Positions 18,960 to 30,962 of a DNA stretch of 64,000 nt are shown piece by piece. The stretch is taken from contig NZ_CP166097.1 in assembly GCF_041228105.1 (NCBI RefSeq), positions 310,001-374,000 of the forward strand, written 5' to 3'. The stretch is from Pectobacterium aroidearum. GTDB taxonomy: Bacteria; Pseudomonadota; Gammaproteobacteria; Enterobacterales; Enterobacteriaceae. Every line of letters begins with the position of its first letter. Position 1 is the stretch's first letter. The notes below the pieces were generated by a model that was not told the origin of the DNA, ran no database searches, and saw only the letters and a list, made by a program, of their open reading frames with translations. The position numbers and the translations under genes are program-made.

Positions 18960-19248
18960 GCCTGTCGTCCGCTCCTGAGCAACCCTGTTTCCGATCTTCC
19001 GCGCGTTTTCTCCCTTATTCCATCGCCATTCTCTGGTGTTTAACCGATGCATCGCGCTGGTGATGTGCCTTTCTGTCAGTACGCTCTACCCAATTGCATT
19101 TAGGATGCGAAGACGATCACAACAAAGTAAAAACGATGTTTCATTTTCTCTTTATCGCGCAGATAGTTATTAGTGTTTAATGAATTCTTAGTGTCTAGTG
19201 TCTAAAAATGAATGGATGCTATGCTGCTCACTACGGTGGAATCCGCTT
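18960..19248. other. Intergenic region between ryhB and the LevR-type regulator gene
   Basis: No supported gene. The last 80 bases are AT-rich and contain three TTAGTGT / CTAGTGT direct copies between about 19170 and 19203, just upstream of the regulator. These might belong to its promoter region, but no clear -35/-10 pair was recognised. Confidence 0.4.
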
Positions 19249-21858
19249 ATGGCTTTGTCCGCGAAAGATAAACTGTTCCAAAACATCATCACGCACTATG
19301 CCAGTAATACCCATGGATTCACGGCGCTGGATTGTGCCGGTTTTATTCAGGTCAGCCGTAGCGTTATCAGCCATTACCTTAATCGCCTGTGCGATGAGGG
19401 CAAACTCCATAAGCAGAATACTCGCCCTGTCCGTTTTTATATTGATACTCGTCCACAAACTTCGCCAGATGCAGTGATACCGCTCAAGCATGATGATGTT
19501 TTTAGTGAACTGATTGGTGCTACAGGAAGTTTGCAGCAAGCCATCTCTTCTTGTCGTTCTGCGGTGAATTATCCTGGTCGGGGGCTACCGATATTGCTCT
19601 CTGGCGAGAGTGGCGTAGGGAAAAGCCACCTGGCAGCAATGATTCATCTTTATGCACAGGATCGCGGCATTGTTGCCTTGGACAAGCCATTGGTCGAGCT
19701 TAACTGTGCCGACTATGCCAACAATCCTGAACTGCTTTCCGCTACGCTGTTTGGCTATATAAAAGGGGCATTTACCGGAGCCGATCGGGATAAAAAAGGT
19801 GCCTTTGATGATGCCGATGGCAGTTTCCTGTTTCTTGATGAAGTGCATCGCTTATCTGCGGAAAATCAGGAAAAACTCTTTTTATTTATGGATAAAGGTT
19901 ACTTCTATCGTCTGGGAGATAACCGTACTCGCCACTCGGCCGCGATCCGCTTTATTTTTGCCACGACGGAAAATGTCGATACGGTGTTGTTGAATACTTT
20001 TCGTCGGCGTATTCCCATTCGTATTGCGCTACCAAACTTTATTTCCCGTCCGCTAACCGAGCGGGTTGCTCAGGTAGAGTATTTTTTACGCCGTGAAGCG
20101 AGCGATCTGAACTGCGATATTCATATGGATAGCCTGTTGATGCATCAACTGGTGGCGTCTCCCATTCGGGGAAATATTGGCGAATTGAAAAACCAAGTCA
20201 GAGTGATGTGTGCCAGTGCATGGAGTGAAAACCAGCATTCAGAATATATTGCATTACAGCCCCTCCAGCCCGGCCAAATGAATGGCGATACGCTGGTGTT
20301 CTCTGCGCGAAAACCTTCAGCTTCCCTCGATATTTCATCACTGTTGCCAAAAGCGATGCGGGATGACGTGATATTCAAAGAGTTTTGTCACAGCGGCAAT
20401 ACCCTACTGTTGAATCGAAAGCTCGAACAACTGCTCACCACGCTTAACTGCACCGTGCAGAAAGAGGAACTCTACAGCGGCTATATCTGGCAAAACACGA
20501 TGCGGGCCATTAATGAGTTGGAAAATCAAACGGGTATTGAATGTAACGCAGACTATCGAAAAACGGTTTGGCTTTGCCTGCATTACGCCATGAATAATGC
20601 CAGTGAAGCGCAATACATCAATGAACTGACGGCCATCACCGATTACGTTTCTGCAAAAGCCAGGCTGCTGGCGCTTGAATGCCTCTGTTTGTTGAAAAAA
20701 TATGTGACAAACACCGATTATCCTTTGCTGATGCCGCTGCTGAGCTGTGCCATGAACAAATTATCCGGCGATGATGATTTGATTCAGGGCGTGATTGTCT
20801 CCCACGGTCGTTCCACGGCTTCCAGTATTGCAGGGATTGCAAACCAACTAACGGGTGGATACTACTTTAAAGCGTTTGATATGCCCAACTCGACCTCGAC
20901 ACGCGAGATCATTGATCTGTTGATTGCCCATCTGGATAGCATCAAACAGCGTGCAGGGTTGATTATATTGGTCGATATGGGATCGCTGAAAGAAATCTAT
21001 GAGGAAATAAAACTGCACCTTCATGGTGAGTTGTTAGTCATTAATAATGTCAGTACGGCGATGGCGCTGGACATTGCATCTAAGATTCAGAGTCGATTGT
21101 CCATGGAAGAGATTATCGACGGCGTAAAAGGCGCCTATGAGGTCGAAACAAGGTATTACGCGGGTATGCTTCCCGGTAATAAAATTATCATTTCATGTAT
21201 ATCTGGTGAGGGGATTTCCAGAAAGCTGAGAGATATTGTATTACGCTATCTGGCCTCTGACACAATAGATATCGTCACAATGGAATATGATGATTTAAAA
21301 TACAAACTGTCACAGGCCGATCCGGCATTAAATGGCACACGGCTCGTCATTACCACGACTGCGCTTGATGCAGGTTATATCCCCATTATTAGTGTTGAGC
21401 AATTAATAAAAGAGAAGTTTGACATCCTGCACAGGGACTATTTTACCGACCTGCTTATCTCCGGTGGAATGGAACCTATGATTGATGAAGTGGTTAAGCT
21501 ATTTACGGTAGAAGGCGTTGCCGGACGTCTTAATTTCCTTAATCCGGTGATTATTATTGATGAAGTGGAAGCCGTGATTAAGCAGTATGAATTTTTCTAC
21601 AAAATTCATTTTGAGAGCTATTTACGTATTAATTTGTTTATGCACATTGCGCTGATGATTGAACGGGTCATGGTCAATACTGGCATGTGCCATCGTGATG
21701 ACTCCGCGCTAACGGCTGAACAGCAGGCGTTTGTCGATGTTCACGATACGTTTTTTCAGGTACTGAACCGTAAATACCATATTGTCGTTCCATTGACAGA
21801 AGTGCTGATGATTTATGAAATCATGGAGCCCTGGATTTCTTCAGACCCTACGCCGTAA
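19249..21858 (+). CDS. LevR-type sigma54 activator with AAA+, PRD and EIIA domains
   Basis: An 869-residue regulator. Domains seen in order: an N-terminal winged-helix DNA-binding region (about 5-65, FIQVSRSVISHYLNRL); a sigma54-interacting AAA+ domain (about 85-330) with Walker A GESGVGKS at residues 119-126, the sigma54-contact loop GAFTGA at 173-178 and Walker B FLFLDE; a first PRD (about 375-490, with LCLHYAM); an EIIA-Man-like domain with the phosphorylatable His in VIVSHGRSTASS (about residue 520); and a degenerate C-terminal PRD. In Bacillus LevR, phosphorylation by HPr and EIIB sets activity by PTS sugar use. ATG 19249 is chosen (GGTGGA 8 nt upstream). It lies just before a mannose-type PTS operon with a sigma54 promoter, its probable target. 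Confidence 0.9.
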   Translation: MALSAKDKLFQNIITHYASNTHGFTALDCAGFIQVSRSVISHYLNRLCDEGKLHKQNTRPVRFYIDTRPQTSPDAVIPLKHDDVFSELIGATGSLQQAISSCRSAVNYPGRGLPILLSGESGVGKSHLAAMIHLYAQDRGIVALDKPLVELNCADYANNPELLSATLFGYIKGAFTGADRDKKGAFDDADGSFLFLDEVHRLSAENQEKLFLFMDKGYFYRLGDNRTRHSAAIRFIFATTENVDTVLLNTFRRRIPIRIALPNFISRPLTERVAQVEYFLRREASDLNCDIHMDSLLMHQLVASPIRGNIGELKNQVRVMCASAWSENQHSEYIALQPLQPGQMNGDTLVFSARKPSASLDISSLLPKAMRDDVIFKEFCHSGNTLLLNRKLEQLLTTLNCTVQKEELYSGYIWQNTMRAINELENQTGIECNADYRKTVWLCLHYAMNNASEAQYINELTAITDYVSAKARLLALECLCLLKKYVTNTDYPLLMPLLSCAMNKLSGDDDLIQGVIVSHGRSTASSIAGIANQLTGGYYFKAFDMPNSTSTREIIDLLIAHLDSIKQRAGLIILVDMGSLKEIYEEIKLHLHGELLVINNVSTAMALDIASKIQSRLSMEEIIDGVKGAYEVETRYYAGMLPGNKIIISCISGEGISRKLRDIVLRYLASDTIDIVTMEYDDLKYKLSQADPALNGTRLVITTTALDAGYIPIISVEQLIKEKFDILHRDYFTDLLISGGMEPMIDEVVKLFTVEGVAGRLNFLNPVIIIDEVEAVIKQYEFFYKIHFESYLRINLFMHIALMIERVMVNTGMCHRDDSALTAEQQAFVDVHDTFFQVLNRKYHIVVPLTEVLMIYEIMEPWISSDPTP

Positions 21859-21949
21859 TAATGCGACGCTGACCAATGAGTCAGTGTCGCCTTTCGCCAC
21901 TTCGCTCTCTGCCACGCCGAACCATACTGACACCTTGCCGCATAAAAAT

Positions 21950-21984
21950 GGATAGCCGGATGGCGTGGCTATCCTCTCTTTTTT
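21950..21984 (+). terminator. Intrinsic terminator of the regulator gene
   Basis: GGATAGCC (21950-21957) and GGCTATCC (21967-21974), perfect 8-bp stem with a 9-nt loop, followed by TCTC and six T (21979-21984). Separates the regulator from the PTS operon. Confidence 0.8.
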
Positions 21985-21998
21985 ATTGACATAAATAG

Positions 21999-22009
21999 GC
22001 GGTCACCGC
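21999..22009. promoter_or_regulatory. Possible activator-binding palindrome
   Basis: GCGGTCACCGC is a perfect 11-bp palindrome about 95 bp upstream of the -24 element at 22101, a usual distance for an enhancer of a sigma54 activator. No copy was seen before the second sigma54 promoter at 27214, which weakens the idea. Confidence 0.25.
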
Positions 22010-22100
22010 GTTTCGACACATCGTTGTATGCCGATCTGGACAGTATTTTTAGCGTCTAATAACTGAAATAAAACCCAATAAAAACAATTAAATAATAATC

Positions 22101-22116
22101 TGGCATGGTAAGTGCA
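22101..22116 (+). promoter_or_regulatory. Sigma54 promoter of the PTS-GH88 operon
   Basis: TGGCATGGTAAGTGCA matches the -24/-12 pattern TGGCAC-N5-TTGCW with GG and GC separated by exactly 10 bases. It is 42 bp before the IIA start codon, fitting transcription from about 22127. The upstream gene encodes a sigma54 activator. Confidence 0.8.
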
Positions 22117-22157
22117 TTAATGCTGCCAGTTGCTGTAAATAAATTAAGGAACGCGTT

Positions 22158-22640
22158 ATGCGAGAAGTTTATATCGCCAGCCATGGCCGATACGCTGAAG
22201 GGACGGTATCCGCCCTGAATTTACTGATTGGCGAAGATCATGCGATTCAACCTATTTGCGCTTATTGCGGCGATATTGGTTCTACAGCTGAATTGGCTGA
22301 GCGTTTTATTGAGATTGCGCAGGAATCGGCGCGGCGTGGAAATGAGTTAGTTATTTTCACCGATATGCAGGGAGGCAGCGTTAATAATACCGCGGTGCAA
22401 CTGATGGTGAAATACCCACATATGCACGTGATTAGCGGCGCTAATTTGATCATGCTGATGGCATTTTGCATGTCTGAAAACAGCGATACCGCCGCTCGGG
22501 TGCGTGAAGCGATCACGATGGCTACAGAAGGTATGCAGTACATGAATGCCGTTCCTGAGCTTCAGGCGGCGCGTGAAGCGAACTTTAGCGCTGAACAGGA
22601 TGGCTCCGACGATTTCTTTACTACGGAGCTATCGCAATGA
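22158..22640 (+). CDS. PTS mannose-family EIIA component
   Basis: A 160-residue cytoplasmic phosphocarrier of the mannose-family PTS. Seen: a beta-strand start MREVYIASHGRYAEGT with the HPr-phosphorylated His9, DMQGGSVNNTAVQLM and SGANLIMLMAF, all usual for EIIA-Man/Aga proteins. It passes phosphate from HPr to EIIB. First gene after the sigma54 promoter. The stop overlaps the GH88 start by four bases, so the two are translationally coupled. Its clustering with an uronyl hydrolase points to uronic-acid disaccharides, not hexoses or plain hexosamines. Confidence 0.9.
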   Translation: MREVYIASHGRYAEGTVSALNLLIGEDHAIQPICAYCGDIGSTAELAERFIEIAQESARRGNELVIFTDMQGGSVNNTAVQLMVKYPHMHVISGANLIMLMAFCMSENSDTAARVREAITMATEGMQYMNAVPELQAAREANFSAEQDGSDDFFTTELSQ

Positions 22641-23812
22641 CGATCATTCTTGAGCCATTAGATGCGCGCTACGAGGCATCTCACCCTCCACTTTCTCCGG
22701 TATGGCTCAATGATGCCATTCAGGATGTTTTAAAAAAGCTGGACGAGATGTTGCCGCGCTTTAGCCACACATTTCCTGCCGCCAGCGCCAGCAGTGGGCA
22801 CTATCCGACGGTTGAAAAGGTCGATTGGACGGAAGGGTTCTGGACTGGCATGTTGTGGCTGGCCTGGGAGGTTACCGGGGATGATAAATATCGTCAGGTG
22901 GCGGAAGGGCTGCTGGACAGCTTTGAAACGCGTCTGGATAACCACATCAAAGTCGATACCCACGACTTAGGGTTCCTTTACCTGCTGTCCTGTGTCAATG
23001 CCTGGCGCCTAACCGGCAACGAACGCGCCCGTTCACTCGCGCTACGTGCTGCGGAACTGCTGTATCAGCGTTATAACGAAACCGCAGGGGTGATACAGGC
23101 ATGGGGCGATCTCAGCGATCCTGCGCGGCAAGGACGCATGATTATTGATTGTAACCTGAACGTCCCGCTTTTGTTCTGGGCTGCGAATGAGACGGGAAAT
23201 ACCCGCTATCGGCAAGCCGCACAGCGCCATCTTGCTTTAGCCGCGCGCCATCTGGTCAGAGATGACGCCTCAACGTTTCATACGTTTTATATGGATATCC
23301 GCACCGGACGCCCGCTACATGGCGATACCCATCAGGGATTCAGCGATGATTCCTGCTGGTCTCGTGGGCAGGCCTGGGGCATTTATGGCTTTGCGCTGGG
23401 CTTTAATTATACCGGCGATGGCGAGCTTCCGGAGTTGTCCCGCAAGCTGGCTCACTATTTTCTCAACCGGCTGCCGGAAGATTATGTCTGTTACTGGGAT
23501 TTGATCTTTACGCCGCAGGATAACGCGTTTCGAGATACCTCTGCGGCAGCGATTGCCGTATGCGGGCTGGCGGAACTGCTAAAGCAGTTGCCCATTACCG
23601 ATCCGCTGCGTCCCGCCTATCACCATGCCATCACGCAGATCGCGCAGAATTTGCGCCAGCACTATTTCGCTCATCACACCGATGGGCTGCTGCGCGAAGG
23701 TGTTTATAACTTCGGCCGCAATATGGGAATTAACGAGCCCAATCTCTGGGGTGATTACTTTTGGTTTGAAGCCCTGGTACGCCTTACCCGAATCTGGACC
23801 CCCTACTGGTAA
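22637..23812 (+). CDS. GH88 unsaturated glucuronyl hydrolase
   Basis: A 391-residue glycoside hydrolase of family 88, an (alpha/alpha)6-barrel enzyme that hydrates the 4,5-double bond of unsaturated uronyl residues made by polysaccharide lyases and so releases the uronate. Seen: the two catalytic-aspartate segments, DTHDLGFLYLLSC (about residue 112) and MIIDCNLNVPLLFW (about 173); FSDDSCWSRGQAWGIYGF; and the terminal NLWGDYFWFEALVRL. There is no signal peptide, so it acts in the cytoplasm after import. The gene sits between EIIA and EIIB, the same arrangement as in streptococcal glycosaminoglycan operons. Substrate (chondroitin, hyaluronan or other uronan disaccharides) cannot be told from sequence. 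Confidence 0.92.
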   Translation: MTIILEPLDARYEASHPPLSPVWLNDAIQDVLKKLDEMLPRFSHTFPAASASSGHYPTVEKVDWTEGFWTGMLWLAWEVTGDDKYRQVAEGLLDSFETRLDNHIKVDTHDLGFLYLLSCVNAWRLTGNERARSLALRAAELLYQRYNETAGVIQAWGDLSDPARQGRMIIDCNLNVPLLFWAANETGNTRYRQAAQRHLALAARHLVRDDASTFHTFYMDIRTGRPLHGDTHQGFSDDSCWSRGQAWGIYGFALGFNYTGDGELPELSRKLAHYFLNRLPEDYVCYWDLIFTPQDNAFRDTSAAAIAVCGLAELLKQLPITDPLRPAYHHAITQIAQNLRQHYFAHHTDGLLREGVYNFGRNMGINEPNLWGDYFWFEALVRLTRIWTPYW

Positions 23813-23836
23813 ATTCTAATAACAGGAGTAAATACC

Positions 23837-24331
23837 ATGATTTCACTTATTCGTATTGACGACCGTCTGATTCATGGACAGGTCGCCGTTGTCTGGACAA
23901 AACACCTTGGAGTTAACCGCATTCTGGTTGCGAACGATCAGATTGTGAATAACGACGTACAAAAGATGTCGTTACGCATGGCCGCCCCGGATACGGCTAA
24001 ATGCGCCATTATGACGGTTGCGGATGCGGTTGATGTACTGAATGATGCCCGCTCCGACAGCATGAAAATTCTGCTCATTATCAATAACGCAGCCGATGCG
24101 CGGCGCTTGATTGAACAAGTCCCTGCGATAAAAACGTTAAACGTCGCGAACTACGGCCGTATTACCGACAACCTGGCGGCAAAAACGAGAATCAGCGACA
24201 CCGTGTATGTGACGCCGGAAGATGTGGCTGATTTTCATGCGATTGCTGAACGTGGCGTGGCGGTTGAGTACCAGGTCTTACCTTCACACCCGATAAAAAA
24301 CCTGATTGAGATGCTGGATAGCGCTCATTAA
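23837..24331 (+). CDS. PTS mannose-family EIIB component
   Basis: A 164-residue EIIB of the mannose-family PTS. Seen: MISLIRIDDRLIHGQVAVVWTK with the phosphoacceptor His13, VANDQIVNNDVQKMSLRMAAP, and VNVANYGRI-like strands that form the domain core. It takes phosphate from EIIA and gives it to the sugar while EIIC/EIID move it inward. A ribosome site (ACAGGAG) precedes ATG 23837. Closest by pattern to AgaV-type EIIB proteins. It may also phosphorylate the LevR-type regulator, as LevE does in Bacillus; that is inference. Confidence 0.92.
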   Translation: MISLIRIDDRLIHGQVAVVWTKHLGVNRILVANDQIVNNDVQKMSLRMAAPDTAKCAIMTVADAVDVLNDARSDSMKILLIINNAADARRLIEQVPAIKTLNVANYGRITDNLAAKTRISDTVYVTPEDVADFHAIAERGVAVEYQVLPSHPIKNLIEMLDSAH

Positions 24332-24342
24332 GCGAGGTCACC

Positions 24343-25146
24343 ATGTTAACAACAGCACTTCTTATTGCATTGGTGATGTATATCGCCAAGTTTGCCGACC
24401 ACACGCTAGGGCAGCCACTGATTGAACGCCCGCTGATTTGTGGCGCGATGGTTGGGTTTGTTCTGGGGGATTTCCAGCAGGGCATCATCATTGGTGCGAC
24501 GCTGGAACTCATTTTCCTCGGCACTATCACTATCGGCGGCTCTGTGCCCGCTGACCTTGCGGTCGGCTCGGTACTGGCTACGGCTTTTACTATTTTAACG
24601 AAAGCCGAACCCGCCGTTGCCGTCGCGCTGGCATTGCCGATTAGTTTATTGGCGGTCTTTGTCTATCAGGTCGAGAAGCTGGTTTATACCGGTCTGGTCG
24701 AGAAATACGATGCGCTGCTTGAAGAGGGCAAAGATCGCGCTGCACTTGGGATGACGCTAGGGATGACGCTGTTCTACGGCGTACCGTTTGCGGTGATCGC
24801 ATTCTTTGGGGTGCTGTATGGGACGGACGTCATTCGCAGCCTGGTAGAAAGCATTCCTGGCACGGTGATGCGTGGCATGACCGCCGTCGGAGGGATTTTA
24901 CCCGCTTTAGGTTTTGCCATTCTTCTTCAGGCGTTGTGGAACCGTAATATCGCGGCTTTCTTCTTTATCGGTTTTGCGATGGCCGCTTACTTAAAACTGC
25001 CCATCATGGGGATCGCGATTATTGCTGCCTCTGTCGCCGTTTACCTGTGTTTTAACGAGTTCAACCAGCTCAAAGCCAACAAACAGAATGCTGCCACTGC
25101 TCCGACGGCTTCTGTAGACGATAAGGATGGGTTCTTCAATGACTGA
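24343..25146 (+). CDS. PTS mannose-family EIIC component
   Basis: A 267-residue integral-membrane permease component with about seven hydrophobic segments. Seen: DHTLGQPLIERPLICGAMVGFVLGD near the N-terminus and LELIFLGTITIGGSVPADLAVGS, the conserved core of AgaW/ManY-type EIIC. Together with EIID it forms the sugar channel in the inner membrane. It starts 11 bp after EIIB and overlaps EIID by eight bases. The C-terminal tail is polar and alanine/threonine-rich. Confidence 0.92.
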   Translation: MLTTALLIALVMYIAKFADHTLGQPLIERPLICGAMVGFVLGDFQQGIIIGATLELIFLGTITIGGSVPADLAVGSVLATAFTILTKAEPAVAVALALPISLLAVFVYQVEKLVYTGLVEKYDALLEEGKDRAALGMTLGMTLFYGVPFAVIAFFGVLYGTDVIRSLVESIPGTVMRGMTAVGGILPALGFAILLQALWNRNIAAFFFIGFAMAAYLKLPIMGIAIIAASVAVYLCFNEFNQLKANKQNAATAPTASVDDKDGFFND

Positions 25147-25996
25147 TATCCAAACCAGGCACGTCAGCGAAACAAACAATGCCAGTGCATACAGTGATAA
25201 CAAGAGTGAGAAAAAGCTGTTTCGCCAGCTGTTCTTCCGCCAGTTCCAACTGCTGGGATCGATGAATTTTACGCGTATGCAAGGGCTGAGTTATGGCTGG
25301 GCGCTGGCGCCGATGCTGAAAAAGATCTACCCAGACCCGCACCGTTATCTGGACGCGCTAAAGCGTAACAGCCAGTTTTTTAACTCCAATCAGCATTTAT
25401 CTCCTTTCATTATGGGGCTAACGCTGTCGATGGAAAAAGAAAACGCCAACAATCCCGACTTTGATCAATCCAGTATTAACGGCATCAAAGTTGCCCTGAT
25501 GGGGCCGTTTGCGGGGGTGGGTGACTCTTTCTTCTACGGTGTGTTACGTATCATCGCGACGGGGATTGCTATCGGGTTAGCCTCTCAGGGAAACCCGCTG
25601 GGTCCTTTGCTTTTCCTGCTGATCTATAACATTCCAAGTTATCTGGTTCGTTACTATGGTGGGGTGATGGGGTATCGGCTAGGGTCGAAATACATTGCGG
25701 AAGCGACCCAGTCGGGCCTGTTGGGCTGTATTACCAAAGCCTCGTCGATTATGGGCTTGATGATGGTCGGTGCGATGAGTGCCAGTATGGTGAAATTTAC
25801 CACGACCTATAACACCACCATCGCCGGACAGCCCTTCGTGTTGCAGGACATTCTCGACAAGATATGCGTTGGCCTCATTCCACTGCTGCTGGTATTAGGG
25901 TGTTTCAAGCTTCTCAAGAAGAAGGTCAGCCCTAATCGGGTGCTTATCCTGTTAATTGTATTAGGCTTTGCCGCAGCAGGTATTGGCATCATCTAA
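25139..25996 (+). CDS. PTS mannose-family EIID component
   Basis: A 285-residue membrane component of the mannose-family PTS. Seen: a polar N-terminus; RQLFFRQFQLLGSMNFTRMQGLSYGWALAPML, the EIID start signature; GVGDSFFYGVLRII with the conserved acidic region; and C-terminal membrane helices. ATG 25139 overlaps the EIIC stop; an ATG at 25127 is also in frame, but AAGGATGG (25123-25130) is correctly spaced only for 25139. Last gene of the sigma54-driven unit before a GC-rich hairpin. Confidence 0.92.
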   Translation: MTDIQTRHVSETNNASAYSDNKSEKKLFRQLFFRQFQLLGSMNFTRMQGLSYGWALAPMLKKIYPDPHRYLDALKRNSQFFNSNQHLSPFIMGLTLSMEKENANNPDFDQSSINGIKVALMGPFAGVGDSFFYGVLRIIATGIAIGLASQGNPLGPLLFLLIYNIPSYLVRYYGGVMGYRLGSKYIAEATQSGLLGCITKASSIMGLMMVGAMSASMVKFTTTYNTTIAGQPFVLQDILDKICVGLIPLLLVLGCFKLLKKKVSPNRVLILLIVLGFAAAGIGII

Positions 25997-26002
25997 ATGC
26001 AT

Positions 26003-26022
26003 CCTCCCTCATGTGAGGGAGG
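26003..26022 (+). terminator. Hairpin after the PTS operon
   Basis: CCTCCCTC (26003-26010) and GAGGGAGG (26015-26022) form a perfect 8-bp stem with a 4-nt loop, 7 bp after the EIID stop; a T-containing stretch follows some bases later. Partial terminator or 3'-end stabiliser. Confidence 0.55.
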
Positions 26023-26105
26023 GGAGCCTTATTCTTTGGTGGAGCGTTAGCGTTGATGTCTGACGCTTTCGCTCGCTTCAGAAACGATAATGAGCAGGAA
26101 GGGCA

Positions 26106-26930
26106 ATGGAATTTAAATTGCTGGCTATCGATCTGGATGGCACGTTGCTGACGTCACAAAAAGCAGTGACGCCAGCGACATGCAGAATATTACAAGAGGC
26201 TCTGGAAAAGGGCATCCATGTGGCGCTGGTTTCTGGCCGGACGCTGCCCAGCGTATTGCAAATCATGGATCAGCTAGGGCTAGTCGGTTCTCGCTGCTGG
26301 GCTATCGCCTGCAACGGTGCGCTGATCTGGAGTCAGGAAAAATCTGCCATGATTAGCGTCCGCGTTCTGGATCATGACGATATTCTGACGTTGACGCATT
26401 TTGGCCGCAGTCTGAATCTGGAATGCTACCAAATCGATGGGCAGCAGTTGGTTGCCAGCAGGCCTGTTCTCTCTGATGCGGGTGCCTTGCGGTATTGCCG
26501 TATGCCGGTGGTTATCCTTCCGCCAGATTGGGAAACCCATTCCCGACGACAGACGCCAAAAATGATGTTTGTTGAGGGACGAACCACGATAGATTCACTG
26601 GCTGGGCGTATCCCTCCGTCGCTTTCTCGTCGTTATTATTTTGTGCGCAGCGAACCTAACTATTTTGAAGTCATGCAGCGGGGCGTTAACAAAGGCACTG
26701 CCTGCCAGACGCTGGCCCACTATCTCGCGATTCCCCCCGCGGCTATTCTGGCAATCGGCGATGAGGAGAATGATAGAGAAATGTTAGCGTTCGCCGGTAC
26801 AGGGATCGCGATGGGGAATGCAGTGCCAAAGATTAAAGCCATGGCAGACTGGGTAACGACAAATAATGACAAAGAAGGCGTAGCCGTTGCGCTTCAACGC
26901 TACCTTACCCTGACCGGGGACTCGTGTTGA
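26106..26930 (+). CDS. Cof-type HAD phosphatase of the PTS cluster
   Basis: A 274-residue class-IIB HAD hydrolase, paralogous to YigL in this window. Seen: motif I AIDLDGTLLT with nucleophile Asp9, VSGRTLPSV, ACNGALIW, the lysine in RGVNKGTACQ, and motif IV IGDEENDREMLAFAG. Such enzymes dephosphorylate sugar phosphates or nucleotides. It follows the PTS operon by 109 bp on the same strand, beyond a hairpin, so read-through is possible. A fitting role would be to remove the phosphate put on the aglycone sugar by the PTS, but that is inference; substrate specificity is not visible. Confidence 0.88.
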   Translation: MEFKLLAIDLDGTLLTSQKAVTPATCRILQEALEKGIHVALVSGRTLPSVLQIMDQLGLVGSRCWAIACNGALIWSQEKSAMISVRVLDHDDILTLTHFGRSLNLECYQIDGQQLVASRPVLSDAGALRYCRMPVVILPPDWETHSRRQTPKMMFVEGRTTIDSLAGRIPPSLSRRYYFVRSEPNYFEVMQRGVNKGTACQTLAHYLAIPPAAILAIGDEENDREMLAFAGTGIAMGNAVPKIKAMADWVTTNNDKEGVAVALQRYLTLTGDSC

Positions 26931-26954
26931 TCGCGAGCCTGCGCTCACCACGTT

Positions 26955-27026
26955 GTACCTTATAGATAATTAGTACGTTATCGATAAGTAGTACCTTATC
27001 GATAAGTAGTACCGTATCGACAATAA
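26955..27026. repeat. Four 18-bp tandem repeats with a palindromic core
   Basis: Units: GTACCTTATAGATAATTA (26955-26972), GTACGTTATCGATAAGTA (26973-26990), GTACCTTATCGATAAGTA (26991-27008), GTACCGTATCGACAATAA (27009-27026). The inner units contain the palindrome TTATCGATAA; the third has a 12-bp palindrome CTTATCGATAAG. The outer units are more diverged. It lies 25 bp after the Cof phosphatase gene and about 190 bp upstream of the second sigma54 promoter. Confidence 0.85.
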
Positions 27027-27153
27027 AGAGGTGCTTTAAATGTGGGGAAAAAAGTATGTGAAAGGAGTTAATTGATACACATACCTCTATTTTCTACATG
27101 TTGTGTGATCCGAGTCTCGCCTAGCGTCTGGGTTGCCGTAGACACTAATAATG

Positions 27154-27177
27154 AATGTGTTTCTTCTTGAACACATT
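27154..27177. promoter_or_regulatory. Inverted repeat upstream of the lyase promoter
   Basis: AATGTGTT (27154-27161), 8-bp spacer, AACACATT (27170-27177). A perfect 8-bp inverted repeat ending 37 bp before the -24 element at 27214. It could be an operator or the end structure of an upstream transcript. Confidence 0.4.
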
Positions 27178-27213
27178 ATTTTAATCTTTTGAAAATAAAA
27201 GTTATTTACCTCT

Positions 27214-27229
27214 TGGCATATCCCTTGCT
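27214..27229 (+). promoter_or_regulatory. Sigma54 promoter of the lyase operon
   Basis: TGGCATATCCCTTGCT matches the sigma54 consensus TGGCAC-N5-TTGCW at all but one position, with GG-N10-GC spacing. It lies 44 bp before the start codon of the heparinase-like gene, the same distance as at the PTS operon. Confidence 0.87.
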
Positions 27230-27272
27230 TATTCCTGTTAGATAATAAAATAAACAGGAAAATAGACGAATC

Positions 27273-29147
27273 ATGAATAGAATCTCTCTGGCTATAATGA
27301 TGACTACCATTTTCATCACTCCCTCCGTGCTGGCTGCTGTTCCTGACGCTCATGAATTTAACGCTATCAATATATTTACTCGCGATACTGTCGTTAAAAA
27401 TTTAAAAAAAGATCATCCAAGATTATTGATGACTGGCGAGGATATAAAAATTATCCAAGAGCAGGTTAAAAGCGATGAAGAGATGAAAAAGCTGGTTGAT
27501 GAGGTAATTAGAAGAGCTGAAGGAAGCCTTAATGAGCCGGTTATTCATTATAAATTGACTGGGAACGATGCATCACCTTCATTACTGGATACATCGCGGA
27601 AGGCTATAAAGATTATCCTGGATAATGCATTTTCCTGGAAAATCACCGGAGATGCTCGTTTCGCTAGAAAAGCGAAAGAAACCGTGCTTGCCGTATCTGA
27701 CTTTCCTGACTGGAATGCGCAATCCCGTTTTCTTGATGCTGGAGAAATGATGTTTGCGGTGGCTATCGGCTATGACTGGCTTTACGACCAGTTCTCCGCC
27801 GAAGAAGAGAAGCAAATTCGGGAGGCACTACTTGAGAAGGGAATTAATTGGGGATTAAAAGCTTACGCTGACAAGGATCCCGCCGCGCCCAGCCTGGGGT
27901 TTCCGTGGTGGGCGACCAATTGGAATGAAGTCTGCAACGGCGGGGTGCTTGCAGCAGTTCTTGCTACCGCGGAACATTATCCCGAACGGACACGGACGCT
28001 GCTCAACAATATTATCCCCTCGCTGAAGATGGGGCTGGATGCCTATAAACCAGATGGCGCGAGTGCAGAAGGCCCCATTTATTGGAGCTACGGTATGACC
28101 TATCGCATTATTGCGCAGGAGATGCTGAGAAGCGCGTTTGGTCAGGATTATGGTTTATCGTCAGATACCGTTCTGGAAAAAACACCCTGGTATCGTTTTG
28201 CTATTGAAGGTTTCTCTGGTGATGGTTTCAACTACGGTGATGCGGTAGAAGATCAGGGTTATACCCCCGTTTATGCCTGGTTCGGCAATCGCTATAAACA
28301 AGATCTCATTATTAATGCTGCCAGAGGACAGATGCAGAAAGCGCTAGCGCGCTCAGCAGCAGGGAAGGTGTGGGGAGAGTTCGATCGCTTTTTGCCACTA
28401 TTTGCGCTGTGGTATCCACAAGCCGTGAGCGTCAGTGGTGCAACGACACAAGATAACTTTCTGTTTCATGGACCATCAGCGCTTTTTATTTATAAGAAGC
28501 AATTTTCAGATGGGGGAAATGTCTGGTTAGGTATTAAGTCTGGTGACAATAAAGCGAATCATGCCCATCAGGATCTTGGCTCTTTTGTTCTGGAATATGA
28601 TGGTGTCCGCTGGGCTAATGATTTAGGCAAAGACTATTATAATCTCCCCGGTTATTTTGATAATGCCGTGCGTCCATCGTATTTCCGCGTATCTGCCTTA
28701 AGCCATAACACGCTCACCTTTGATGGTGACAATCAGGATCCTAATGGCGTGGCGACACTCATTTGGGATGAAAAGCAATCAACGGCAAGGCTTGAATTAA
28801 CACGAGCCTATCCTCATGTCGCGGAAAATATACTCAGAGAATATCAGTTAGATGGAAAAGCCATAACAATAAGTGATGCAATACAAGGAACCTACAACCC
28901 CAAAATATACCGTTGGGCAATGGTGACAACTGCCGAGATCACTATCAAGGGCAATACGGCATTGTTGACCAAAGAGGGTAGGACGATCAACGTGATAAAA
29001 GATGATGATTCTGCGGAATTTCGTGTTCTATCGACAAAACCTGCCGATAACCGACAAAAGGACAACGTGGGGACATCCATGTTGGCAGTACAAAAGGAAA
29101 TACCTGCAAAATCTGATTACAGAATCAATGTCACTATTACGCCATGA
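27273..29147 (+). CDS. Exported heparinase II/III-like polysaccharide lyase
   Basis: A 624-residue precursor. Seen: a signal peptide (MNRISLAIMMTTIFITPSVLA, cleavage near residues 21-22); an alpha/alpha-toroid region with DHPRLLMTGEDI, FPWWATNWNEVCNGG and SAEGPIYWSYGMTYR; then the heparinase II/III beta-sandwich domain with NHAHQDLGSFVLEYDGVRW, which carries the conserved metal/substrate His and Asp. Such enzymes cleave uronic-acid glycans by beta-elimination (PL12, PL15, PL17, PL21 and related families); the exact family is not decided here. It likely acts in the periplasm. The gene is AT-rich compared with the core genes around it, a sign of transfer. It has its own sigma54 promoter. Confidence 0.88.
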   Translation: MNRISLAIMMTTIFITPSVLAAVPDAHEFNAINIFTRDTVVKNLKKDHPRLLMTGEDIKIIQEQVKSDEEMKKLVDEVIRRAEGSLNEPVIHYKLTGNDASPSLLDTSRKAIKIILDNAFSWKITGDARFARKAKETVLAVSDFPDWNAQSRFLDAGEMMFAVAIGYDWLYDQFSAEEEKQIREALLEKGINWGLKAYADKDPAAPSLGFPWWATNWNEVCNGGVLAAVLATAEHYPERTRTLLNNIIPSLKMGLDAYKPDGASAEGPIYWSYGMTYRIIAQEMLRSAFGQDYGLSSDTVLEKTPWYRFAIEGFSGDGFNYGDAVEDQGYTPVYAWFGNRYKQDLIINAARGQMQKALARSAAGKVWGEFDRFLPLFALWYPQAVSVSGATTQDNFLFHGPSALFIYKKQFSDGGNVWLGIKSGDNKANHAHQDLGSFVLEYDGVRWANDLGKDYYNLPGYFDNAVRPSYFRVSALSHNTLTFDGDNQDPNGVATLIWDEKQSTARLELTRAYPHVAENILREYQLDGKAITISDAIQGTYNPKIYRWAMVTTAEITIKGNTALLTKEGRTINVIKDDDSAEFRVLSTKPADNRQKDNVGTSMLAVQKEIPAKSDYRINVTITP

Positions 29148-29188
29148 TCTCTGTAATCTGTTGTTAATCAATAAAAAGGAAACTGTGT

Positions 29189-30856
29189 ATGGATATCTGT
29201 TTGAGTAAGAAAAAAGGTGTTTTTTTCTTAATAATTATATTTTTGAGTCTGTTTCTAAGCGTACTCAGAGTAGGACACGCGGCCGTCAATGATAAAGCCT
29301 TCCTGCATCCGGGTATGCTTTATACGCAAGCGGATTTGGAGCGGATGAAGGCAGGGGTTAATAATAAGCAGGAGCCTTGGTATACGGATTGGCAACTGCT
29401 GCAATCTCACTATTTGGCAAGCGCCACGTATTCAGTCACGCCAAAAGCGGTGGTATACCGAAACGATCCCACAAATGGCAGTGCGGGAAATGGCGAGCTA
29501 CAGAATAGTGCTTCAGCCGCATTGTCCCTCGCAATTGAATGGGCGATGACAAAAAATCCCGCCTATGCGAATGCGGCGATAAAAATTCTGAATGGCTGGT
29601 CAACGACATTGACGGCAATTAAGGGCAACGACGCACAGCTTGCCGCCAGCCTGTATGGCTATAAATTGCTTAATGCGGCTGAGATATTACGCTATACCGG
29701 CAGCGGCTGGTCGTCGGCTGATATTGCGCAGTTTAGTAAAATGATGACCAACGTATTTTACCCATTGACCAGCACCTATGGTCAGGTCAATGGCGGTTGG
29801 GCGAATGGTAATTGGGATGCGGCCGACACGCTATTTCACCTGAGTTTAGGGGTCTGGCTGAACGATTCTGAATTATATAATAGCGCTGTAACGTATTTTA
29901 AACAGGGCGAGGGCAATGGTTCGGTTATCCATTATGTACAAAATGAGAATGGCCAATTGCAGGAGAGTGGCCGCGATCAGGCGCATGCGCAAGGGGGATT
30001 AGGCTTATTGGTGATGGCGGCGCAGATTGGTTATAACCAGCGCCAGTATCATACAAGCGGGGCAGATATGGTGAGCTACCCGAATAATAGCTATCCACTG
30101 GTTAAGGCGGCGGAATACACCGCGAAATATAATCTGGGATATACGGTGCCCTATACGCCGATTCCTGGTAAAGGTTATACGCTTGCGGATATGGGAAAAG
30201 GGCGCGCATGGATCCCCGGTCTGACCATCTCTTCTGCATTTCGTGGCGAATTCAGGCCAATATATCGTGGCATTTTCAGCTTATTCACCGCAGCCGGTGT
30301 GTCTGAAACTCAACTGCCTTACACGAAAGAAGTTATCAGTCGTATGCCGATAGGTAAGTTTTATTTTGATCATCCTTCCTATGAAGGATTAATCAATGCG
30401 ACAGATTCTTCTTCATCCGACAATATGTATATTGTGTTGCAGTCCGTCAGCAAATCTCGGAATAACGATAACACGGGAACGCTGGCTGCCGTCACGGGTG
30501 AGTCCGCGCCAATTACCGTAAATGGGGTCAATCCGTCGGTAAATAGTGGGATTCAGGCGGTTTATCTTAATCAAAACAAATTCGCTTTCCGTTCGATACA
30601 GACAGGGAAATATATTTCTGCCACCTCGGATGGTCGTTTAGTTGCATCTGCCAACAACGTGACCGACAGCGAATCCTTTATTTATACCGATTCTGGCAAT
30701 GGTAATGGAACGTTATTGTCCGTATCGAATAAGCGTTTCCTGATTATGGATTCTGATACCTATCAAATTTCAGCGACTGGAACGGGCGTTAGCAATGATA
30801 ATGGCCGGTGGATGATGTTATATCCCGATCCAACAGCGTTAGGTGTTGTTAAGTAA
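29189..30856 (+). CDS. Exported alginate-lyase/PL38-like enzyme with C-terminal beta-trefoil-like domain
   Basis: A 555-residue precursor, 41 bp downstream of the heparinase-like gene. Seen: a hydrophobic N-terminus (signal peptide to about GHA, residue 31); an alginate-lyase-type alpha-barrel (about 35-400) with NGGWANGNWDAADTLFHLS, and the segment QLQESGRDQAHAQGGLGLL typical of the alginate lyase/PL38 superfamily; then about 110 residues with repeated FRSIQTGKYISA-like strands that resemble a fascin or ricin-type beta-trefoil, possibly carbohydrate-binding. Expected activity is endo-cleavage of a uronan such as glucuronan or alginate; the substrate is inferred only from the family. Same transcription unit as the previous gene. 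Confidence 0.8.
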   Translation: MDICLSKKKGVFFLIIIFLSLFLSVLRVGHAAVNDKAFLHPGMLYTQADLERMKAGVNNKQEPWYTDWQLLQSHYLASATYSVTPKAVVYRNDPTNGSAGNGELQNSASAALSLAIEWAMTKNPAYANAAIKILNGWSTTLTAIKGNDAQLAASLYGYKLLNAAEILRYTGSGWSSADIAQFSKMMTNVFYPLTSTYGQVNGGWANGNWDAADTLFHLSLGVWLNDSELYNSAVTYFKQGEGNGSVIHYVQNENGQLQESGRDQAHAQGGLGLLVMAAQIGYNQRQYHTSGADMVSYPNNSYPLVKAAEYTAKYNLGYTVPYTPIPGKGYTLADMGKGRAWIPGLTISSAFRGEFRPIYRGIFSLFTAAGVSETQLPYTKEVISRMPIGKFYFDHPSYEGLINATDSSSSDNMYIVLQSVSKSRNNDNTGTLAAVTGESAPITVNGVNPSVNSGIQAVYLNQNKFAFRSIQTGKYISATSDGRLVASANNVTDSESFIYTDSGNGNGTLLSVSNKRFLIMDSDTYQISATGTGVSNDNGRWMMLYPDPTALGVVK

Positions 30857-30866
30857 TAACCGAACA

Positions 30867-30962
30867 CGGAACTGGAGTTATCTCTGGTTCCGTCATTTCT
30901 CAATGCTTATTTCTCAATGCGTCATCCTGTTCTGATTTTTCGAACAGAGCGGTGAGTTTTTT
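30867..30962 (+). terminator. Possible terminators after the lyase operon
   Basis: Two hairpins follow the stop: CGGAAC (30867-30872) / GTTCCG (30887-30892), and CTGTTC (30927-30932) / GAACAG (30942-30947) with six T at 30957-30962. Each stem is only 6 bp; weak, but in the expected place. Confidence 0.4.

What the first reader, a model, noticed from the sequence alone, without database searches (positions are those of the whole stretch)
19249..30856. Sigma54-controlled PTS/GH88/lyase system for an unknown uronic-acid polysaccharide
Seen: activator with PTS-sensing domains, IIA, GH88, IIB, IIC, IID, phosphatase, and two exported lyases in 11.6 kb, all on one strand, between glpC-ryhB and yhhW. 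Known: GH88 acts on the unsaturated products of lyases, and in streptococci IIA-GH88-IIB-IIC-IID plus a heparinase II/III gene degrade glycosaminoglycans. Inferred: periplasmic beta-elimination, PTS import with phosphorylation, cytoplasmic GH88 cleavage. In a soft-rot bacterium, pectin is normally used by a different set (PelABC, TogMNAB, KdgM), so this would be a separate route for a glucuronate-type glycan of plant or bacterial origin. No sulfatase, porin or kdu gene is in the cluster.
Basis: partly seen in the sequence, partly recalled or inferred. Interest (0 to 1): 0.85.

Follow-up and report, generated by a model that had tools for sequence, protein, structure and literature searches.

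The report
Sigma54-PTS pathway for plant glucuronomannan
A soft-rot plant bacterium carries neighbouring genes, predicted to encode a switch protein, a sugar importer, two exported lyase-like enzymes and a fragment-splitting enzyme, that likely let it feed on an acidic plant polysaccharide probably built of glucuronic acid and mannose, by a route otherwise known from streptococci that eat animal tissue polysaccharides.

Summary
Confirmed: window 19249-30856 of a Pectobacterium aroidearum-like chromosome encodes a LevR-type sigma54 activator, mannose-family PTS IIA/IIB/IIC/IID, GH88, a HAD phosphatase and two exported lyase-like proteins on one strand between ryhB and yhhW. Lyase 1 is PL35: catalytic triad kept, four of six residues placed near the -1/-2 subsites changed. 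Lyase 2 has the alginate-lyase toroid fold plus a beta-trefoil but fits no characterised family. Strong -24/-12 sites precede IIA (18 of 18 genomes) and PL35 (6 of 6); a candidate operator, TAGYGTCTA, occurs exactly four times in 64 kb, all in the cluster's three promoter regions. The sugar clue lies in relatives: 3 of 7 cluster-bearing Pectobacterium genomes carry a second manA in the operon, and other genera place the same PTS-GH88 core beside a KdgM porin (6 of 11) and a GH43 gene (4 of 11), several with sigma54-like sites. With no amino-sugar or sulfatase gene seen in the clusters, this favours an unsulfated, mannose-containing plant glucuronan (glucuronomannan) over a glycosaminoglycan. 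Substrate and activities are untested. I rate it a new variant of the streptococcal PTS-GH88 route.

The parts
19189..19204 (+). Two overlapping copies of the candidate operator TAGYGTCTA upstream of the activator gene
   Evidence: Exact matches; two or more half-sites (up to 1 mismatch) upstream of the activator in 16 of 18 loci
19249..21858 (+). LevR-type sigma54 activator (AAA+ with GAFTGA, EIIA-man, PRD)
   Evidence: Pfam; best NCBIfam match DagR, far below its cut-off; the G014 orthologue's longest ORF starts at this ATG
21950..21974 (+). Terminator-like hairpin between activator and IIA
   Evidence: 9-bp stem with T-run; consensus match only
22050..22058 (+). Candidate operator TAGCGTCTA
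   Evidence: Exact match; weaker across other loci (15 of 18 with up to 1 mismatch)
22101..22116 (+). Sigma54-like promoter TGGCATGGTAAGTGCA of the IIA operon
   Evidence: Equivalent high-scoring site upstream of IIA in 18 of 18 genomes (19 loci, two from one genome)
22158..22640 (+). PTS IIA, mannose family
   Evidence: PF03610 5.8e-16; His in SHGRYA
22637..23812 (+). GH88 unsaturated glucuronyl hydrolase, no signal peptide seen by eye; start overlaps IIA stop
   Evidence: PF07470; 2zzr 2.1e-105; Asp110 and Asp171 at the catalytic places
23837..24331 (+). PTS IIB, mannose/sorbose family
   Evidence: PF03830 5e-45; PDB sorbose/mannose IIB
24343..25146 (+). PTS IIC
   Evidence: PF03609 1.6e-66
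25127..25996 (+). PTS IID, overlaps IIC
   Evidence: PF03613 5.4e-95
26106..26930 (+). Cof-type HAD phosphatase
   Evidence: TIGR00099 178 bits, cut-off 137
27122..27147 (+). Inverted pair of candidate operator half-sites (TAGCGTCTG and TAGACACTA) upstream of PL35
   Evidence: such a pair (up to 1 mismatch each) in 6 of 6 PL35-bearing genomes
27214..27229 (+). Sigma54-like promoter TGGCATATCCCTTGCT of the lyase operon
   Evidence: One mismatch to TGGCACN5TTGCW; equivalent site in 6 of 6 genomes (7 loci)
27273..29147 (+). Exported PL35 lyase
   Evidence: 8khv 3e-75, 9o3q 1.3e-63; catalytic N216, Y270, H430 conserved; signal-like N-terminus by eye
29189..30856 (+). Exported lyase-fold protein: (alpha/alpha) toroid plus C-terminal beta-trefoil
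   Evidence: PF05426 1.3e-10; model pLDDT 92; nearest toroid folds PL17, PL5, PL38, PL35 at 14% identity or less; signal-like N-terminus by eye
30866..30893 (+). Inverted repeat after lyase 2, possible operon end
   Evidence: 12-nt arms, 83% complementary

Best explanation
The cluster encodes the parts of a PTS-GH88 pathway behind two sigma54-like promoter sites, and most likely serves to feed on an unsulfated plant polysaccharide with alternating glucuronate and mannose (glucuronomannan type). Shown by sequence: the genes, their order, the two promoter-like sites, the shared candidate operator, the conserved PL35 and GH88 catalytic residues, and a second manA in the operon of three relatives. 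Inferred: (1) exported PL35, helped by the lyase-fold protein, cuts the 4-linked glucuronate by beta-elimination to unsaturated glucuronyl-mannose; (2) the mannose-family PTS imports it and phosphorylates C6 of mannose; (3) cytoplasmic GH88 splits it into unsaturated glucuronate and mannose-6-phosphate; (4) ManA (cluster copy in relatives, housekeeping copy in the window strain) makes fructose-6-phosphate, while unsaturated glucuronate joins the KduI/KduD route encoded elsewhere; (5) with no substrate, the PTS keeps the LevR-type activator phosphorylated and off; substrate drains that phosphate and both sigma54 operons switch on. Neither outer-membrane passage nor the role of the HAD phosphatase is explained.
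For: Core order IIA-GH88-IIB-IIC-IID under a PRD-bearing sigma54 activator. Sigma54-like sites upstream of IIA in 18 of 18 genomes and of PL35 in 6 of 6, with no such peak upstream of activator, HAD or lyase 2 in the window. Exact TAGYGTCTA: 4 in 64 kb, all in the three promoter regions, about 0.84 expected; in 17 related loci 36 of 37 exact hits lie upstream of activator, IIA or PL35 and one upstream of GH43 (placed). Second manA inside the operon in G007, G014 and G023, 88-100% alike and about 69% to the housekeeping copy; all 12 genomes searched have a housekeeping-type copy, 3 have the extra full copy and G069 a fragment; it passes the curated ManA cut-off. KdgM porin in 6 and GH43 in 4 of the 11 clusters outside Pectobacterium, with clear sigma54-like sites near the start of 5 of 6 KdgM genes and 1 of 4 GH43 genes, weaker at the other three. 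PTS import phosphorylates C6, so the non-uronate sugar needs a free C6 hydroxyl (PMC6837340, passages). A fern glucuronomannan has beta-1,4-GlcA and alpha-1,2-Man with terminal xylose; gum ghatti has a similar backbone and a sesame-leaf one is mentioned (PMC6630198, passages). GH88 lacks the sulfate-binding residues recalled for the streptococcal enzyme (H232, N358, R361, M363 instead), a pattern kept in 17 of 17 related loci except one M-to-V. PL35 changes at GAGase II R87, R88, H136 and N191. KduI-type hits occur in the window's own genome.
Against: manA is absent from the window's own operon and, as a full gene, from 15 of the 18 cluster loci, so mannose is inferred from three close relatives. 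The 11 genomes with clusters outside Pectobacterium, and G022, gave no PL35 (0 of 12, a call without a positive control of its own), so the PTS core can work without these lyases and may serve a broader diet. PL35 keeps R94 and N192 of the six residues placed near the -1/-2 subsites, and the characterised PL35 enzymes act on glycosaminoglycans (PMC12088678, PMC12269599). The operator was picked from these same regions; where IIA has one site it is not significant alone (shuffle p 0.08-0.16), it is missing upstream of IIA in L035, L055 and L056, and the control stretches upstream of IID (8 of 18 loci) and GH88 (3 of 18) also hold a one-mismatch hit. PL35 specificity is read from one low-identity pairwise alignment. 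His232 is shared by 6 of 8 GH88 enzymes of the other, MFS-linked type, so it is not specific. No enzyme was assayed.
Confidence: 0.48

Rival explanations
1. A glycosaminoglycan route: PL35 cuts hyaluronan, unsulfated chondroitin or heparosan-type capsules, the PTS imports the unsaturated disaccharide phosphorylated on the N-acetylhexosamine, and GH88 splits it, as in Streptococcus agalactiae.
For: The three solved PL35 relatives found are described as glycosaminoglycan lyases (PMC12088678 sections 8-9, PMC12269599 passages); the same PTS-GH88 module imports unsaturated hyaluronan disaccharide in streptococci (PMC6837340, passages); IIC scores best, though below cut-off, with the GalNAc subunit AgaW; among solved structures GH88 is closest to streptococcal UGL.
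Against: No amino-sugar deacetylase, isomerase or sulfatase seen among the ORFs inside the 18 clusters (BLAST to the cluster genes and by eye), while manA, KdgM and GH43 appear; four of six residues near the PL35 -1/-2 subsites changed; named close IIC relatives are Pantoea, Erwinia, Martelella alba and a Vibrio MAG.
Confidence: 0.2
2. A route for a different glucuronate-hexose polymer of bacterial origin (xanthan side chains, a capsule or exopolysaccharide), with mannose, glucose or galactose next to the uronate.
For: ManA would also fit xanthan or mannose-bearing capsules; GH88 enzymes are recalled to act on xanthan and gellan products; plant-associated genera such as Pantoea and Erwinia would meet such polymers.
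Against: Xanthan needs further backbone hydrolases, none of which are in the cluster; GH43 with a beta-xylosidase-type C-terminal domain (three scanned of four relatives) points to a xylose- or arabinose-decorated plant glycan.
Confidence: 0.2
3. A route for a pure uronan (glucuronan or alginate), the lyases acting as alginate or glucuronan lyases.
For: Lyase 2 matches Pfam Alginate_lyase and the folds of PL5, PL17 and PL38; one PL35 enzyme also cuts alginate weakly (PMC12088678).
Against: PTS substrates need a free C6 hydroxyl, which uronans lack (PMC6837340, passages); PL35 has Thr215 where alginate-cutting GAGase III has the essential His188 (with PMC12088678 section 9); lyase 2 has gaps opposite the PL38-type His and Tyr, though that alignment is weak.
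Confidence: 0.06
4. The two exported proteins are not functionally tied to the PTS set: lyase 2 is an older resident of the ryhB-yhhW site and PL35 a separate arrival.
For: Lyase 2 stands alone at the site in G021 and, in two pieces, in G017; G022 has PTS and lyase 2 without PL35; genomes of other genera have the PTS core and no PL35 match; a P. brasiliense PL35 relative at 55% has unknown context (P0148).
Against: The PL35 promoter carries the same sigma54-like element and operator pair as the cluster in 6 of 6 genomes; within the 25 genus genomes PL35 was found only where the PTS core is present (6 of 7 with it, 0 of 18 without).
Confidence: 0.06

Closest known systems
Streptococcal GAG (unsaturated hyaluronan disaccharide) PTS cluster of S. 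agalactiae
   Same: Mannose-family IIA/IIB/IIC/IID with a GH88 and a lyase; import with C6 phosphorylation, then cytoplasmic GH88 cleavage (PMC6837340, passages).
   Different: Gram-negative plant pathogen; LevR-type sigma54 activator; PL35 rather than the PL8/PL12 lyases of such clusters (PMC5430744, passages); no DhuI/DhuD in the cluster; manA, KdgM and GH43 in relatives; GH88 without the recalled sulfate-binding residues.
Salmonella DgaR/GfrR systems (LevR-like activators with PTS operons)
   Same: LevR-like sigma54 activator controlling a PTS operon (PMC4987338, passages).
   Different: Those take D-glucosaminate and fructoselysine/glucoselysine; this activator scores 403 bits against a DagR cut-off of 1400 and the operon carries GH88, with lyases alongside.
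PL35 GAGases (8khv, 8khw, 9o3q)
   Same: Homology over most of the protein and catalytic Asn/Tyr/His.
   Different: Residues aligned with R87, R88, H136, N191, Y240 and Q307 of GAGase II are P, S, R, T, S and T; R94, E242, D299 and R342 are kept.
Bacteroides caccae PUL25 (PL35 plus GH88, chondroitin)
   Same: PL35 and GH88 working in tandem (PMC12269599, passages).
   Different: That locus is predicted to include GH109, GH154 and peptidases; no PTS is mentioned in the passages I saw.
Marine flavobacterial clusters proposed to degrade diatom glucuronomannan (PMC9723552)
   Same: Proposed substrate of the same polymer type (search listing and start of abstract only).
   Different: The paper centres on GH92 genes in flavobacteria; not compared by sequence here.
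DUF2264-MFS-GH88 clusters of other Enterobacteriaceae
   Same: GH88 at 50-57% identity in the same family of bacteria.
   Different: AraC-like gene and MFS-like transporter (by eye), no PTS gene matching the cluster's; GH88 has HxxSxK in 7 of 8 and HxxGxK in 1 where the PTS-linked type has NxxRxM.

Membership tests
PL35 | Sequence homology to characterised PL35 over most of the protein | tested here: met
   3e-75 over residues 47-624 to 8khv
PL35 | Catalytic Asn/Tyr/His triad | tested here: met
   N216, Y270, H430 align with N192, Y246, H401
PL35 | Lyase activity on a glycosaminoglycan | not testable with these tools
   No assay; four of six residues near the -1/-2 subsites differ
GH88 unsaturated glucuronyl hydrolase | Family homology and two catalytic Asp | tested here: met
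   2.1e-105 to S. agalactiae UGL; D110, D171; that these are the catalytic places is recalled
Streptococcal-type PTS-GH88 GAG cluster | IIA/IIB/IIC/IID adjacent to GH88 with a lyase | tested here: met
Streptococcal-type PTS-GH88 GAG cluster | DhuI/DhuD in the cluster | tested here: not met
   No such gene among the nine of 19249-30856; KduI-type hits elsewhere in the genome
Streptococcal-type PTS-GH88 GAG cluster | Import of unsaturated hyaluronan disaccharide | not testable with these tools
   Needs a PTS assay
Known mannose, sorbose or GalNAc PTS models of NCBIfam | Score above curated cut-off | tested here: not met
   Best model of each: IIA 67.5/130, IIB 123.4/163.6, IIC 177.9/300, IID 217.5/292.75
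LevR-like sigma54 activator | AAA+ with GAFTGA plus C-terminal EIIA and PRDs | tested here: met
   Pfam, GAFTGA at 173; only one PRD was reported, two are described for the family (PMC4987338)
LevR-like sigma54 activator | Sigma54 promoter at the target operon | tested here: met
   18 of 18 genomes; consensus evidence only
PL5/PL38 (lyase 2) | Sequence homology to characterised members | tested here: not met
   Profile search: alginate lyase 3nfv E 0.012 and PL38 E 0.39, each over 47 residues; no hit with the single sequence
PL5/PL38 (lyase 2) | Toroid fold | tested here: met
PL5/PL38 (lyase 2) | Catalytic His and Tyr | tested here: inconclusive
   Both fall opposite gaps in a weak profile alignment; own invariant set E259, R262, D263, H266, Y310 in 33 of 33

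The most novel reading that the evidence does not exclude
This is a phosphotransferase route for a plant glucuronomannan: plant-associated Enterobacterales have turned the streptococcal PTS-GH88 module onto glucuronate-mannose, importing unsaturated glucuronyl-mannose as its 6-phosphate, with a GH88 whose conserved Arg361 replaces the sulfate-reading serine and may hold that phosphate, and with a lyase-fold family that has its own catalytic set.
Probability: 0.33. Interest if true: 0.75.

Novelty: new variant of a known kind. Interest (0 to 1): 0.57.

Why it matters
If right, it names a substrate for the PTS-GH88 clusters of Pectobacterium, Pantoea and Erwinia relatives, adds a plant polysaccharide to the PTS menu, gives PL35 a possible non-animal target, and turns a vague 'uronic-acid' locus into a test with a few extractable polymers and one operator sequence. 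It would also be a second acidic-polysaccharide route in soft-rot bacteria beside the pectin system. Library searches for glucuronomannan with phosphotransferase (no paper), Pectobacterium with heparinase (no paper), GH88 with Pectobacterium (7 papers) and glucuronomannan with lyase (19 papers), the last two seen as listings only, showed no title describing this pathway; the library holds open-licence papers only.

Tried and rejected
Sulfated glycosaminoglycan as substrate: disfavoured because PTS import needs a free C6 hydroxyl (PMC6837340, passages) and the GH88 lacks the sulfate-reading residues recalled for S. agalactiae UGL. Pure uronan or alginate: disfavoured for the same C6 reason and Thr215.

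D-2-hydroxyacid dehydrogenase as a replacement for the kdu route: it occurs in 10 of 18 clusters, but all 18 genomes searched have a hit to the KduI family model (the model also picks up a second, higher-scoring group that I take to be IolB), so presence and absence give no support. Its role stays open.

Lyase 2 as partner fused to PL35: two metagenomic proteins fuse a PL38-type domain to a PL35 (P0209, P0232), but lyase 2 is not close to that PL38 domain (weak profile match), so the fusion is only loose support. One relative of lyase 2 is fused to GH53 (P0091); not followed.

KdgR-type box (recalled consensus): one 3-mismatch hit at 19127, 0.78 expected. CRP-type sites: 21 found, 24 expected. 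E. coli genomes: no match to the IIB-IIC-IID-HAD stretch. Plasmids: only PL35 relatives at 31% identity or less, in 8 records. A plain consensus count of sigma54 sites over the window is below chance (26 found, 44 expected); the case rests on position and conservation. PL35 in the family sample: 1 of 295 genomes, the window's own. Salmonella salamae, Kluyvera and Hafnia PL35 relatives at 58-60% have no genome context here.

Full report
WHAT IS THERE. The window lies in a 5.28-Mb single-contig genome (G000:C1:310001-374000). The same cluster is at 98.6-100% protein identity in Pectobacterium aroidearum L6, whose coordinates match G340, a genome that genome-search runs the same species. Nine genes run on the + strand from 19249 to 30856, between ryhB and yhhW. 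Pfam and NCBIfam support each (GH88 and lyase 2 have no NCBIfam match). The IIA stop overlaps the GH88 start, and IIC overlaps IID. G+C falls to about 0.42-0.49 over the activator and both lyase-like genes, against about 0.49-0.62 in the flanks, and the cluster is patchy in the genus, so it looks acquired or often lost.

DISTRIBUTION. A GH88 of this type (92% or more) is in 6 of the 24 genus genomes (G009 holds only a 55% type) and in the same-species genome (L016), so in 7 of 25. PL35 is in 6 of 25, one of them in two pieces (G023). At the yhhW side of the 18 genus genomes without the PTS core, 11 have ryhB directly beside yhhW, 2 hold lyase 2 alone (one in two pieces), 2 have ryhB 1-2 kb off, and in 3 no ryhB was found in the stretch taken. 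In the wider family 12 of 392 sampled genomes carry the 70%-or-more GH88 type, counting the window's own; the other matches are 57% or less. In ten loci of that second type (L036-L039, L059-L064) the neighbours look like an AraC-type gene, a DUF2264 protein and, in nine as listed, an MFS transporter; Pfam was run on one DUF2264 gene, the rest were judged from N-termini. Named relatives of the IIC at 78-88% are Pantoea sp. B65, Martelella alba, Erwinia sp. MYb416 and a Vibrio MAG; the next group, at 60%, is Enterocloster (48 proteins, few named).

REGULATION. The activator has a sigma54 AAA+ domain with GAFTGA, an EIIA-man domain and one PRD above the cut-off, the layout of LevR-like activators such as DgaR and GfrR in Salmonella, in which EII-mediated phosphorylation is inhibitory and the sugar relieves it (PMC4987338, passages). 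Scoring 200 bp upstream of each gene against the -24/-12 consensus, a site of 18.5-21.2 out of 21.2 lies 53-66 bp upstream of IIA in all 19 loci scanned (18 genomes) and one of 19.5 lies 53-59 bp upstream of PL35 in all 7 (6 genomes), with shuffle p of 0.007 or less; activator, HAD and lyase 2 show no such peak in the window. So the cluster probably has two sigma54 operons, IIA-to-HAD and PL35-lyase 2. A nine-base word, TAGYGTCTA, which I noticed in these upstream regions, has exactly four exact matches in 64 kb, two upstream of the activator, one upstream of IIA and one upstream of PL35, against about 0.84 expected; with one mismatch the window holds 11, no more than chance (12.3 expected). 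Since the word came from these regions the count is partly circular; the better test is other genomes, though 7 of the 17 related loci are close kin. In those 17 loci (333,387 bases) there are 37 exact matches; by the gene coordinates all but one lie upstream of activator, IIA or PL35, and the exception (L052:14264) lies upstream of a GH43 gene. With one mismatch allowed, 16 of 18 activator upstreams have two or more, 15 of 18 IIA upstreams one or more (p 0.08-0.16 where single), and 6 of 6 PL35 upstreams two or more; none was found upstream of manA, the dehydrogenase or lyase 2, while IID (8 of 18) and GH88 (3 of 18) upstreams, which are coding, hold single hits. L035, L055, L056 and L058 have no exact match.

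LYASE 1. It matches solved PL35 enzymes over most of its length (3e-75, 2.2e-66, 1.3e-63). On GAGase II numbering the catalytic N192, Y246 and H401 are kept (N216, Y270, H430), as are R94, E242, D299 and R342. R87, R88, H136, N191, Y240 and Q307 become P102, S103, R152, T215, S264 and T331. The paper places R87, R88, R94, H136, N191 and N192 near the -1 and -2 subsites, and reports that Ala variants of the putative binding residues were partly or fully inactive on hyaluronan (PMC12088678, section 8). So four of those six differ here. N191 is His188 in the one PL35 enzyme that also cuts alginate (section 9). The mapping rests on one low-identity pairwise alignment, and Y427, E428 and E431 were outside it. 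The enterobacterial clade keeps the motif FPWWATNWNEVCNGG in 9 of 9 aligned sequences (the window and 8 of the 120 listed relatives).

GH88 AND PTS. The GH88 keeps both Asp that I recall as catalytic. At the places that, from memory, read the 6-sulfate in S. agalactiae UGL (R236, S365, S368, K370), it has H232, N358, R361 and M363; the pattern holds in 17 of 17 related loci, one with V for M, whereas 7 of 8 DUF2264-MFS-type enzymes have H, S, K at the last three places and one H, G, K (8 of the 10 such loci were examined). PTS subunits fall below the curated cut-offs of the mannose, sorbose and GalNAc models they match. Streptococcal PTS import of unsaturated hyaluronan disaccharide phosphorylates C6 and is unsuited to 6-sulfated sugars (PMC6837340, passages).

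THE SUGAR CLUE. In G007, G014 (P. polonicum, by contig match) and G023 the operon holds a complete manA between the HAD gene and PL35. The G007 copy passes NCBI's ManA cut-off (676 against 571 bits); the three are 88-100% alike and about 69% to the housekeeping manA that all 12 searched genomes also have; G069 has a fragment beside its HAD gene. The window strain, its same-species genome, G003 and G022 lack it and would rely on the housekeeping copy. A D-2-hydroxyacid dehydrogenase is in 10 of 18 loci. Outside Pectobacterium, 6 of 11 clusters carry a KdgM-family porin (Pfam run on two, the rest by 77% or higher identity) and 4 of 11 a GH43 without visible signal peptide (Pfam run on three; the fourth judged from its N-terminus). 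In a stretch from 300 bases before to 150 after the longest-ORF start, sigma54-like sites lie at 5 of 6 KdgM genes (shuffle p below 0.01; the sixth 0.49) and, more weakly, at the GH43 genes (p 0.000, 0.010, 0.060, 0.080); true starts were not settled. Inside the 18 clusters I saw no amino-sugar or sulfatase gene; this is by BLAST to the cluster genes and by eye on the remaining gaps and ORFs, not by a full family scan.

READING. A polymer whose lyase product is unsaturated glucuronate on a sugar with a free C6, whose sugar phosphate is mannose-6-phosphate, and which can carry xylose or arabinose, fits plant glucuronomannan: fern mamaku mucilage has a beta-1,4-GlcA and alpha-1,2-Man backbone with terminal xylose and galactose, gum ghatti has a similar backbone, and a sesame-leaf glucuronomannan is mentioned (PMC6630198, passages). 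That a GH88 can cut glucuronyl-1,2-mannose is recalled for Bacillus GL1 UGL, not tested. KduI-type hits occur in the own genome, one about 7.7 kb beyond the window's right edge. Everything after the gene content is inference; no activity, expression or growth was measured.

VERDICT. It works like the streptococcal PTS-GH88 route but differs in control, lyases and probably sugar, so I file it as a new variant of a known kind.

Noticed in passing
window 26953-27024: Four 18-bp tandem units (TAGTACSTTATCGATAAG type) upstream of the PL35 promoter; not the candidate operator and not explained.
   Followed up: no
L030:4785-5750, L035:11340-12323 and eight other loci: A D-2-hydroxyacid dehydrogenase travels with the PTS-GH88 core in 10 of 18 loci though all 18 genomes have a KduI-family hit; it could reduce the alpha-keto product of GH88.
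   Followed up: partly
L032 (G023), L094 (G017), L031 (G022), L034 (G003): Signs of decay: PL35 split in G023 and absent in G022, lyase 2 split in G017, HAD absent in G003.
   Followed up: partly
L031:13228-15024: A GH3-family gene sits between yhhW and the gntR-like regulator in G022, on the opposite strand.
   Followed up: no
L036-L039, L059-L064: A separate enteric cluster, AraC-like regulator, DUF2264, MFS-like transporter and GH88 (about 50-57% identical), in some beside a PfpI-like gene; its GH88 keeps Ser and Lys (7 of 8 examined) where the PTS type has Arg and Met.
   Followed up: partly
P0209 and P0232 (metagenomic proteins): Single proteins that fuse a PL38-type alginate lyase domain to a PL35 domain.
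   Followed up: partly
P0144 (Salmonella enterica subsp. salamae), P0147 (Kluyvera), P0142 (Hafnia): PL35 relatives at 58-59% in other enterics; their gene context is unknown here and would test the sugar.
   Followed up: no
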